Part shown: in pieces, positions 40,259 to 42,095 of the stretch | How the letters are laid out: each line of letters begins with the position of its first letter | Position numbering within the stretch: position 1 is the stretch's first letter | From: Saliphagus infecundisoli | GTDB lineage: Archaea; Halobacteriota; Halobacteria; Halobacteriales; Natrialbaceae | Length of the DNA: 64,000 nt | NCBI RefSeq assembly: GCF_020177375.1 | Contig: NZ_JAIWHV010000001.1 | Location: 62,001 to 126,000, forward strand | Direction: 5' to 3' | Translations under genes and position numbers: made by a program | Notes under the pieces: model-generated | Seen by the model: the letters and a program-made list of their open reading frames with translations, nothing else | Database searches by the model: none | Told to the model about the DNA's origin: nothing

Positions 40259-40914
40259 GTGTTCGACGCCCACGTCCACTCGAACTACTCCGACGGTCGC
40301 TTTCTCCCTCACATGGTCGAGGCCGCGGCGGAAGCCGGCCTCGAGGGCGTCGGGATCGCCGACCACTGTGCCGTCTCCACTCGAGAGGGCCCCGCGAGGC
40401 TCGCGCGCGCTGGGGGTTCACCCTCGATCGAACCTACGAGCGCCGCCGGCGGGCGATCGAGTCGATCCGTGCGGAGGCCGACCTCCGGGTGTTCGACGCC
40501 GTCGAGATGGATTACGACCCCCGCGACGAGGAGCGGATCGCGGCTTTTCTCGACGAAGCCGGCTTCGAGTACGCCATCGGCAGCGTCCACGCCGTCGGCG
40601 GCGAGAACGTCCAGCGGCCCGCCCGGTTTCGGGGTCGACCCGCCTCCGAACTCGATGCCGTGGTCGACGACTACTTCGAGAAACTCCTCGCCCTCGTCGA
40701 CTCCGACCTGTTCGCGGTCGCCGCCCACCCCGATCTCGTCGAGCGCACCGAGCCCCTCCGTGGCCGGGCGACGGCCGACCAGTACGAGCGCGTCGCCCGC
40801 GCCTTCGCCGATTCGCGGACGATCCCGGAACTCAACGCCGGCCGGGCGCTCTCATCGGGGGGCGACTGGGTTACGGGATCGTGCCGTCGAACTCGTACTC
40901 GTCGGCCCAGTTGA
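40259..40914 (+). pseudogene. PHP-domain phosphoesterase gene, frameshifted and 3'-truncated
   Basis: From a GTG at 40259 the frame reads MFDAHVHSNYSDGRFLPHMV and GIADHCAVSTREGPARL, the first PHP metal motifs. Near 40402-40411 the frame must change by a missing base, and the neighbouring frame then reads WGFTLDRTYERRRRAIESIR through FDAVEMDYDPRDEERI, GSVHAVGG and AAHPDLVERT. It stops making sense at about LNAGRALSSGGDW. The family's last metal motif (D-x-H in a GTDSH context) is missing, and about 30-60 residues are lost. The frame runs on to 40914 over the next gene. Both lesions should inactivate the gene. Confidence 0.75.
40869..40878 (+). repeat. Direct repeat, left copy, flanking the nuclease gene
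   Basis: The 10-base sequence GGTTACGGGA occurs here and again at 41339-41348. The two copies bracket the PD-(D/E)XK gene, and the left copy overlaps its stop codon. A target-site duplication is one reading. The outer bases do not match, so the repeat is only 10 bases and could be chance. Confidence 0.4.
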
Positions 40915-41281
40915 TCGAGGGGTGGTCGATAGCGGCGTCGTGTCGGAGTTCCATCTTCCCTTCGGTCGCAGCCCCGACGTCGACCCAGTAGAATCGGTCG
41001 CCGTCCGGATGCCGAACGAGGAAAGCGTCGATCTCGTCGCGATAGGTCCTCTCGCGGTACTCTCCGTCGTCGGTCGTTTGTGAGTGGGTGTTAAAGCGGA
41101 TGGTCCGCTCTTTGTTCCACCACGCCGTCTTGCACTGTAGGCGGTGGAGGTCCGTGCCGTCGTCGACGATTAGGTCATAACCGTCGTTGTCGTCGAACGG
41201 AATCGACACGCTGTATCCGGCCGAGATCAGCCTCGAGATGACCGCTGCTTCGGTCGCGTCGCCGACGTCCTTCGAGTTCAT
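40871..41281 (-). CDS. PD-(D/E)XK nuclease-like protein (group I intron endonuclease-like)
   Basis: A 136-residue protein with a PD-(D/E)XK core: Glu11 in TEAAVISRLISAGYSVSI, Asp36 in GYDLIVD, and Gln49-Cys50-Lys51 in HRLQCKTAWW, followed by strands IRFNTHSQTT and DAFLVRHPDGDRFYWVD. This matches the small PDDEXK nucleases related to group I intron endonucleases, which occur sporadically in haloarchaea. GC content is visibly lower than its neighbours. It is opposed to the truncated PHP gene at its 3' end and lies 206 bases from tRNA-Asp. A mobile or defence origin is plausible. No partner gene or intron is visible here. Confidence 0.75.
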   Translation of the reverse strand: MNSKDVGDATEAAVISRLISAGYSVSIPFDDNDGYDLIVDDGTDLHRLQCKTAWWNKERTIRFNTHSQTTDDGEYRERTYRDEIDAFLVRHPDGDRFYWVDVGAATEGKMELRHDAAIDHPSINWADEYEFDGTIP

Positions 41282-41338
41282 GACGTGCCTGTCGCCTCAT
41301 CGTATATCAACGATCGGCTCCGGTCGCCGTCGAGGGGT

Positions 41339-41348
41339 GGTTACGGGA
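41339..41348 (+). repeat. Direct repeat, right copy
   Basis: The second copy of GGTTACGGGA, 470 bases right of the first, 57 bases upstream of the nuclease start codon. Downstream of it, up to the tRNA, no gene is seen. The region includes AT-poor sequence with short inverted repeats. Confidence 0.4.
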
Positions 41349-41487
41349 GACAACGCGGGTATGGGGTCCGAACCACTCGAACCTCGCTTCGCTCGGTTTC
41401 GTCGTCCAGGCCCCTCCGTGGGGAGTTTTTCCACTTACGGAGCGGCAACACACGCTACGCGCTCTCGTCAATTTGTCGCGAAAAACA

Positions 41488-41560
41488 CGCCCGGAGCGGG
41501 ATTTGAACCCGCGTCACAACCGTGACAGGGTTGTATGATGGGCCACTACACCATCCGGGC
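41488..41560 (-). tRNA. tRNA-Asp (anticodon GTC)
   Basis: Read on the minus strand, the 73-base cloverleaf has acceptor arm GCCCGGA (41560-41554) pairing with TCCGGGC, discriminator G at 41488, D-arm TGTAGTGGCCCATCA, anticodon stem CAACC/GGTTG with loop CTGTCAC (anticodon GTC at 41524-41526), and T-arm GCGGGTTCAAATCCCGC. All stems pair perfectly or nearly so. No intron and no encoded CCA. tRNA genes are frequent integration sites, and a foreign-looking nuclease gene lies just downstream of its 3' end. Confidence 0.95.
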
Positions 41561-41586
41561 TCGCAGTTTCAGGTATCGGTGTCCGA

Positions 41587-41594
41587 GTATTAAG
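41587..41594 (-). promoter_or_regulatory. TATA-like box of tRNA-Asp
   Basis: CTTAATAC on the minus strand about 30 bases before the tRNA 5' end, in an otherwise GC-rich gap. Confidence 0.45.
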
Positions 41595-41713
41595 GCTTTC
41601 CAATCGACGCCGGTGTGGTACGGCGGGGCGCCCATCCGGATCCGCGCGTGGACTCGCTTCGTCCGTCAGTGCCCAAAGGGATATATGCCCGAACGGCGTA
41701 GGTGGGACGTGCC

Positions 41714-41740
41714 CGATCCCCGACCGGGATCGCCGGTCGG
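41714..41740 (+). promoter_or_regulatory. Mutually exclusive hairpins upstream of rpoH
   Basis: CGATCCC (41714-41720) pairs with GGGATCG (41726-41732), while CCGACC (41720-41725) pairs with GGTCGG (41735-41740). The arms overlap, so only one can form at a time. They lie about 130 bases before the rpoH ATG and 27 bases after the GATATATG box, where a transcript could begin near 41706. The layout is attenuator-like, but chance in GC-rich DNA is a real alternative. Confidence 0.25.
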
Positions 41741-41867
41741 ATAGCACCGCAGCCGAGTCAGTTAGTAACCGTTAAATGCCTGCCGACGGTATGCTGCTGT
41801 AGTATCCCGTGACAGCACCTTCTCCCCCGGTAGCCGAGACCAGCATCCACCGCGGTGACACCCATAC

Positions 41868-42095
41868 ATGGTAGACGTAAGCCAACACGAACTCGTCCCC
41901 GAGCACACCGTCCTCGACGAGGAGATCCTAGAGGACGTCCTCGAGGAGTACGACATCGATCGCACCGACCTGCCGAAGATAAAACGCACGGACCCGGCGC
42001 TTCCCGACGAGGCCGAGATGGGAGACGTCGTCAAGATCGTGCGGGACTCCCGGACGGCCGATCAGGCGGTCGTCTACCGACTGGTGGTGGACTGA
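41868..42095 (+). CDS. rpoH: DNA-directed RNA polymerase subunit H (Rpb5-like)
   Basis: A 75-residue subunit equivalent to the C-terminal domain of eukaryotic Rpb5. It reads [20 protein letters not shown], then [20 protein letters not shown] and [20 protein letters not shown], which is the complete archaeal protein. It forms part of the lower jaw of RNA polymerase. It is the first gene of the operon, one base from rpoB2. Confidence 0.96.

What the first reader, a model, noticed from the sequence alone, without database searches (positions are those of the whole stretch)
40869..41348. 10-bp direct repeat brackets a PD-(D/E)XK gene next to tRNA-Asp
Seen: GGTTACGGGA at 40869-40878 and 41339-41348 frames the lower-GC nuclease gene, and the left copy sits at the truncated end of the PHP gene. 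Known: group I intron-type PDDEXK endonucleases drive their own spread; tRNA genes attract insertions. Inference: a free-standing nuclease cassette of about 470 bp that inserted with a target duplication. No transposase or intron is visible, so the mechanism would be unusual.
Basis: partly seen in the sequence, partly recalled or inferred. Interest (0 to 1): 0.52.

Follow-up and report, generated by a model that had tools for sequence, protein, structure and literature searches.

The report
tRNA-gene-targeting homing nuclease in haloarchaea
The small nuclease gene belongs to a family that in salt-loving archaea (and in some viruses) nearly always sits right beside a tRNA gene, one nuclease lineage per kind of tRNA, and it looks like a selfish gene that spreads by cutting that tRNA gene; the short repeat that drew attention to it is not part of the mechanism.

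Summary
The 10-bp repeat is real but uninformative: the same 1.3 kb holds 14 exact 10-mer repeat pairs, the left copy lies over the nuclease's own stop codon, and the orthologous loci lack it. PHP truncation is separate; a relative has intact PHP and the nuclease. The "target duplication" reading fails.

The tRNA is the real clue. Of 118 PDDEXK_5 loci examined in Halobacteria, 100 lie downstream of a tRNA gene on the same strand; 3 lie just upstream of one; 1 lies inside a tRNA-Lys intron. Nuclease lineages sort by tRNA species (4 changes, the minimum), not by host family (21). Among 53 tRNA-Asp-linked nucleases, one tree change separates hosts whose tRNA-Asp has the G28-C42 anticodon-stem pair from those without it; the acceptor-stem allele of the same tRNA needs 8. 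Two near-identical strains have swapped nuclease lineage and stem allele together. Linked tRNA-Lys genes all carry introns, and linked tRNA-Pro genes carry non-consensus stems. The only PDB relative is 2ost, which I recall is I-Ssp6803I.

Best explanation: free-standing PD-(D/E)XK homing endonucleases aimed at tRNA anticodon regions, spreading by intronless or collaborative homing and protected by stem changes or introns. Cleavage is untested. New variant of a known kind.

The parts
40871..41281 (-). PDDEXK_5 nuclease gene, 136 aa; residues G7, E11, Y35, D36, Q49, K51 that are invariant in the 33-sequence alignment are all present
41488..41560 (-). tRNA-Asp(GTC), 207 nt upstream of the nuclease on the same strand; inferred homing target (an allele of it)
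41512..41539 (-). anticodon stem-loop region of tRNA-Asp with the A28-T42 ('AA') allele; the pair lies at 41532/41518 (tRNA numbering recalled)
   Evidence: G000:C11:103512-103539; allele co-segregates with nuclease clade
41282..41487 (-). spacer between tRNA-Asp and nuclease (60.2% GC)
41868..42095 (+). rpoH, conserved neighbour on the far side of the tRNA, used as the anchor for synteny
40262..40914 (+). PHP pseudogene (frameshift near 40390-40430, C-terminus missing); neighbour, not part of the system
40869..40878 (+). left copy of GGTTACGGGA; lies over the 3' end of the nuclease gene; no function supported
41339..41348 (+). right copy of GGTTACGGGA, in the spacer; no function supported

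Best explanation
The gene is a free-standing PD-(D/E)XK homing endonuclease whose target is an allele of the neighbouring tRNA-Asp gene. Inferred mechanism: the enzyme cuts the anticodon stem-loop region of a tRNA gene that lacks its own protective allele. The break is repaired from the donor chromosome. The repair tract starts in the tRNA gene and copies the downstream nuclease gene together with the protective tRNA allele (intronless homing with co-conversion). Protection comes from a compensatory base-pair change in the anticodon stem (tRNA-Asp lineage II, probably tRNA-Pro) or from a bulge-helix-bulge intron in the anticodon loop (tRNA-Lys, often tRNA-Asn). In one genome the nuclease is itself encoded in such an intron. 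Shown: linkage, orientation, sorting by tRNA species, co-segregation with the stem allele, allelic swaps, purifying selection. Inferred: cleavage, the exact site and the immunity. The window's copy is intact but lies on a long branch.
For: Linkage: 100 of 118 PF11645 loci have a same-strand tRNA within 1,300 nt upstream (65 Asp, 15 Pro, 12 Asn, 5 Lys, 3 Gly), 3 lie 16-48 nt upstream of a tRNA, 1 is inside a tRNA-Lys intron, 1 has a 3' tRNA-Pro remnant, 13 divergent ones have none. Tree of 83 tRNA-linked intact nucleases: tRNA species 4 changes (least possible 4, shuffled mean 27.8); host family 21 changes (least 6). tRNA-Asp: CG versus non-CG anticodon-stem allele needs 1 change on 53 nucleases, acceptor-stem allele of the same gene needs 8. 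Swap: G176 and G080 are 97.9% and 98.1% identical in the flanks but 36-79% over most of the tract, with the stem allele swapped inside tRNA-Asp; G036/G009 show the same. tRNA-Lys: 5 of 5 linked genes carry an intron against 5 of 99 unlinked, and 5 of 5 named Lys loci, two of them repeats of the same places. tRNA-Pro in family f6: 6 of 6 linked have a non-consensus stem against 1 of 8 unlinked, p 0.005. Intron-encoded copy L169: ORF fills nt 17-442 of a 451-nt intron in the only tRNA-Lys(TTT) matched in that genome. dN/dS 0.02-0.24 in 13 of 15 pairs; the other 2 had saturated dS. 2ost is the only PDB match; 33 of 33 members match PADLOC 'homing endonuclease'. Viruses carry it beside tRNA genes: 13 of 13 loci fetched.
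Against: No cleavage was tested. Asp lineages I and III have the common CG stem in 20 of 20 hosts, so their protection is not explained by a rare allele. Five of 12 Asn-linked nucleases have an intronless tRNA-Asn (one of them a pseudogene). The AA allele also occurs in many genomes without any nuclease, and no remnants were found in the nuclease-free loci scanned. Pro stems: f12 p 0.08, f7 p 1.0. Lys introns within genus g45 alone: 4 of 4 against 4 of 12, p 0.08. G186 and G202 carry one AA and one CG copy. L084 is a lineage II nuclease beside a CG tRNA (1,153 nt away). All loci are phylogenetically related.
Confidence: 0.7

Rival explanations
1. Promoter capture and hitch-hiking: the nuclease genes live behind tRNA genes because these give a constant promoter and a conserved recombination patch; stem alleles travel along by ordinary recombination and the tRNA is not cut.
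For: All linked genes are co-directional with the tRNA; conserved tRNA genes naturally bound recombination tracts.
Against: Nuclease lineage matches tRNA species with the minimum number of changes; only the anticodon stem, not the acceptor stem, co-segregates; one copy is inside the anticodon-loop intron.
Confidence: 0.17
2. A host or viral defence or competition nuclease that cuts tRNA genes of incoming or rival genomes, kept for that benefit rather than as a selfish homing gene.
For: Purifying selection; the family is in a defence model library, though labelled homing endonuclease; tailed haloviruses and phages carry it.
Against: Patchy presence, pseudogenes and fragments at fixed sites fit a gain-decay-loss cycle.
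Confidence: 0.08
3. One reading: a 470-bp nuclease cassette inserted with a 10-bp target duplication at the PHP/tRNA junction.
For: The repeat exists at the stated places.
Against: Repeat is of a kind common locally, lies partly over the gene's own end, is absent from orthologues; intact PHP coexists with the nuclease in G015.
Confidence: 0.02
4. Remnant of a tRNA-integrating mobile element (integrase type) that left its nuclease between duplicated att sites.
For: Nuclease often lies between two tRNA-Asp copies.
Against: The flanking copies are complete tRNA genes, not 3' fragments; twin copies also occur without the nuclease; the sorting by tRNA follows the nuclease itself. I did not search the flanks for integrases.
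Confidence: 0.03

Closest known systems
I-Ssp6803I (PDB 2ost), PD-(D/E)XK homing endonuclease of a cyanobacterial tRNA-fMet group I intron (the tRNA-fMet intron and the identity of 2ost are recalled)
   Same: Same fold family by profile search (E 8e-15); E, D and QxK residues invariant in our relatives; tRNA gene as home.
   Different: Here mostly free-standing, beside at least five tRNA species, in archaea; one copy in an archaeal spliced intron, not a self-splicing group I intron.
SegB of phage T4 and intronless homing (PMC2988022, passages)
   Same: Free-standing homing endonuclease among tRNA genes that spreads without an intron.
   Different: SegB is GIY-YIG and cuts a tRNA intergenic region; here the family is PD-(D/E)XK, chromosomal, and the inferred site is the tRNA anticodon region, with host stem changes as protection.
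Collaborative homing and archaeal rRNA-intron enzymes such as I-PogI (PMC3984707 passages; I-PogI seen only as a reference title)
   Same: A nuclease that cuts at the insertion site of a neighbouring intron without an ORF; bulge-helix-bulge introns.
   Different: Different nuclease fold and tRNA instead of rRNA or phage protein genes.

Membership tests
PDDEXK_5 (PF11645) / I-Ssp6803I-like nucleases | Profile match over the whole domain | tested here: met
   131.9 bits, cut-off 26.1; 2ost E 8e-15
PDDEXK_5 (PF11645) / I-Ssp6803I-like nucleases | Catalytic E / D / QxK residues | tested here: met
   E11, D36, Q49, K51 invariant in 33 sequences; their catalytic role is recalled
Homing endonuclease gene | Cuts a specific site in an allele lacking the gene | not testable with these tools
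   no biochemistry
Homing endonuclease gene | Patchy, horizontally moving presence at one fixed site | tested here: met
   89 of 195 genomes have PF11645; swaps at the tRNA-Asp site; host family needs 21 changes
Homing endonuclease gene | Own site altered so that it is not cut | tested here: inconclusive
   Stem allele (Asp lineage II, Pro in f6) and Lys introns fit; Asp lineages I and III and 5 of 12 Asn loci do not show it
Intronless homing element (SegB type) | Free-standing gene beside its target, co-conversion of flanking markers | tested here: inconclusive
   Replaced tract bounded at tRNA-Asp in G176/G080 and G036/G009 as co-conversion predicts, but the target itself was not tested
Archaeal bulge-helix-bulge tRNA intron (L169) | Intron after position 37 with bulge-helix-bulge fold | tested here: met
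   Fold of the same layout as the short tRNA-Lys introns; splicing itself not tested
Transposon-like cassette with target duplication | Flanking repeat conserved as insertion border | tested here: not met

The most novel reading that the evidence does not exclude
Haloarchaeal tRNA genes are in an arms race with a family of tRNA-specific homing nucleases: rival lineages aimed at the same tRNA flip an anticodon-stem base pair back and forth (A28-T42 versus G28-C42 in tRNA-Asp) as the self/non-self mark, archaeal tRNA introns (including one that encodes the nuclease) serve as another mark, and viruses carrying tRNA-plus-nuclease units move them between species. Anticodon-stem evolution and some tRNA introns would then be scars of selfish DNA.
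Probability: 0.4. Interest if true: 0.86.

Novelty: new variant of a known kind. Interest (0 to 1): 0.73.

Why it matters
It would give a concrete selective cause for two long-standing puzzles: why archaeal tRNA genes gain short introns in the anticodon loop, and why anticodon-stem base pairs change in compensatory pairs in otherwise near-invariant tRNAs. It would be a natural set of small nucleases, each specific for one tRNA gene, and a directly testable two-allele drive system in culturable archaea. The intron-encoded copy would be a PD-(D/E)XK nuclease inside an archaeal spliced tRNA intron; my searches of the held papers listed no report of one, but most subscription papers are not held.

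Tried and rejected
Target duplication and PHP insertion: rejected. Integrase remnant: considered, weak, flanks not scanned. Vertical core gene: rejected because within genera g7 and g10 one species has a nuclease 67-68% and its sister species one 41-44% identical to the window protein, and because the two fall in different clades. Degraded nuclease remnants at nuclease-free tRNA sites: none found in any of the nuclease-free loci scanned, so the idea that AA alleles without nuclease are scars has no direct support. Intron as universal protection: rejected (all linked tRNA-Asp, and 5 of 12 linked tRNA-Asn genes, have no intron). Outside Halobacteria: no genome of the phylum sample outside the window's order reached the family cut-off (23 of 294 did, all in the order). 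Plasmids: only 2 weak matches of the divergent subfamily. Viral-contig scan: none.

Counts made by hand from printed listings, which were cut: tRNA-Lys intron states (104 genomes) and tRNA-Asn states. tRNA-Pro stems were typed (139 of 195 genomes matched; only families f6, f12, f7 tested). In the Pro test G133 (3 stops), G101 (32-residue fragment) and G182 (nuclease beside a truncated tRNA-Pro, complete copy 12 kb away) were counted as linked. Trees left out pseudogenes and short or long proteins: 94 of 118 loci, 83 of those, 53 of 65 Asp loci (L139 dropped as a long branch). L033 (divergent, no tRNA) was not among the 118.

Full report
What was reported. GGTTACGGGA occurs at 40869-40878 and 41339-41348 around a 136-aa ORF at 40871-41281(-) that is a full-length PDDEXK_5 protein (PF11645, E 2e-38), 207 nt downstream of tRNA-Asp(GTC) at 41488-41560(-). 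The gene is 60.8% GC, the window 68.0%. The stretch 40500-41800 contains 14 exact 10-mer repeat pairs (3.2 in shuffles) and two exact 12-bp repeats. The left copy lies over the nuclease's own last codons and stop. Orthologous loci in G010 and G015 lack the 10-mer. The PHP gene in the window is frameshifted and truncated, but G015 has an intact PHP gene and the nuclease in the same order. The repeat is therefore not an insertion border.

Same place in relatives. Of 61 genomes searched (the window's own included), 24 encode a homologue. Eighteen loci (L005-L022), 17 from the window's family and one from family f7, have the nuclease downstream of tRNA-Asp on the rpoH side. In several the nuclease lies between two complete tRNA-Asp genes; twin tRNA-Asp genes also occur without the nuclease.

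The family lives with tRNA genes. PF11645 is found in 89 of 195 genomes of the order and in none of 14 control genomes; in a sample of 294 genomes of the phylum only members of the order pass the cut-off (23). I took every place plus the further one search places used here, 118 loci in all. One hundred have a tRNA on the same strand within 1,300 nt upstream: 65 Asp, 15 Pro(TGG), 12 Asn, 5 Lys, 3 Gly. Of the other 18, three lie 27, 16 and 48 nt upstream of tRNA-Arg, -Leu and -Gln on the same strand, one lies inside a tRNA-Lys intron, one (L083) follows a 3' remnant of tRNA-Pro, and 13, mostly a divergent subfamily, have no tRNA of this kind.

One lineage per tRNA. On a tree of 83 intact tRNA-linked nucleases, tRNA species changes 4 times, the least possible, with a shuffled mean of 27.8, while host family changes 21 times (least possible 6, shuffled mean 48.2). 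The tree is short (131 columns) and many deep forks are unresolved.

The anticodon stem travels with the nuclease. tRNA-Asp has two common anticodon-stem alleles that differ by one base pair: CAACC/GGTTG in 64 of 195 genomes and CGACC/GGTCG in 100 of 195, with two genomes holding both. On a careful tree of 53 intact Asp-linked nucleases the CG versus non-CG state changes once (support 96/91; shuffled mean 16.6; 0 of 500 shuffles as low). The acceptor-stem allele in the same gene changes 8 times. Lineage II hosts carry CAACC or, twice, other stems; the one exception, L084, has its nearest tRNA-Asp 1,153 nt away. Lineages I and III are all with CG. Several genera contain both alleles, so the allele is not simply a mark of the host.

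Swaps caught in the act. G176 (lineage I, CG) and G080 (lineage II, AA) are 97.9% identical over 2,200 bp on one side and 98.1% over 1,685 bp on the other. Between them identity falls to 36-79% over most of the tract, which starts at the stem pair in the first tRNA-Asp and ends at the start of the next gene; over the same tract G080 matches the more distant G205 at 89-100% where enough columns align. G036/G009 show the same pattern (91.8% over 3,977 bp, 96.6% over 1,475 bp; between them only one 266-bp piece around a tRNA-Asp aligned, out of register). In seven same-genus pairs the homology on the rpoH side runs through tRNA-Asp and stops within about 25 bp of its 3' end; part of this is simply that tRNA genes are conserved.

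Introns. All five Lys-linked nucleases follow a tRNA-Lys with a short intron, against 5 of 99 unlinked tRNA-Lys genes counted by hand (p 3e-6, not corrected for kinship; within genus g45 p 0.08). In G046 the nuclease ORF occupies nt 17-442 of a 451-nt tRNA-Lys intron whose ends fold with the same bulge-helix-bulge layout as the short introns; no second tRNA-Lys(TTT) was matched in this 98% complete genome. Its protein falls beside the Lys lineage (SH-aLRT 81). tRNA-Asn: 7 of 12 linked genes have an intron; several unlinked ones do too, including the one in the window's own genome.

tRNA-Pro as a repeat of the test. The common 5' stem is CGGGC. In family f6, 6 of 6 linked genes depart from it, with four different stems, against 1 of 8 unlinked (p 0.005); in f12 8 of 8 against 5 of 9 (p 0.08); in f7 2 of 2 against 5 of 6 (p 1).

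Protein. Nine residues are invariant in the 33-sequence alignment, among them E11, D36, Q49 and K51. The only PDB chain found is 2ost (E 8e-15), which I recall is I-Ssp6803I, the enzyme of a group I intron in a cyanobacterial tRNA-fMet gene. dN/dS was 0.02-0.24 in 13 pairs of 15, two being saturated. All 33 match PADLOC's 'homing endonuclease' model and phrog_5018.

Viruses. Of 50,697 phage records 33 match. I fetched 13 loci, chosen to cover most of the different phages; all 13 have same-strand tRNA genes near the nuclease. In haloviruses HSTV-4 and HJTV-3 the ORF starts 2 bp after tRNA-Asn. Large phages often carry tRNA arrays, so this is weaker evidence than in archaea.

Interpretation. The simplest account is a set of homing nucleases, each aimed at one tRNA gene, moving by intronless homing and, where an intron is the protected state, by collaborative homing. 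Phage T4 SegB is the nearest mechanistic precedent: free-standing, between tRNA genes, with a tRNA intergenic target (PMC2988022, passages). Linkage, sorting, co-segregation and swaps are shown. Cleavage, site and protection are inferred. What fits least: lineages I and III sit with the common CG allele, and many AA genomes have no nuclease, with no remnant of one in those scanned.

Literature seen: passages only of PMC4496867, PMC3984707, PMC3943268, PMC2988022, PMC11078007 and PMC8919778; the rest as search listings.

Noticed in passing
window 40262-40914: PHP-domain gene is a pseudogene (frameshift plus missing C-terminus); intact in relative G015.
   Followed up: partly
L172, L173, L150, L152-L154, L161 (also L156-L158): A divergent PDDEXK_5 subfamily with no tRNA nearby; one is on a plasmid of Natrialbaceae archaeon AArc-T1-2.
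   Followed up: no
L106, L117, L121 and L080: tRNA-Pro-linked proteins of about 256-265 aa that look like two tandem nuclease domains, the second apparently degenerate.
   Followed up: no
G000:C55:74230-74262: The window's own genome has an intron-type tRNA-Asn without a PDDEXK_5 gene beside it.
   Followed up: partly
L083 (G182:C206): Nuclease of the Pro lineage sits behind only the last bases of a tRNA-Pro gene, as if recombined inside the tRNA.
   Followed up: partly
L160 (G202) and L177 (G186): Tandem tRNA-Asp genes with one AA and one CG copy; in G202 a nuclease fragment lies between them.
   Followed up: no
L203 2387-2923 and L204 1887-2423: Haloviruses HSTV-4 and HJTV-3: PD-(D/E)XK gene starts 2 bp after a viral tRNA-Asn.
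   Followed up: partly
many f1, f7 and f17 loci: Tandem complete tRNA-Asp genes occur with and without the nuclease; cause unknown.
   Followed up: partly
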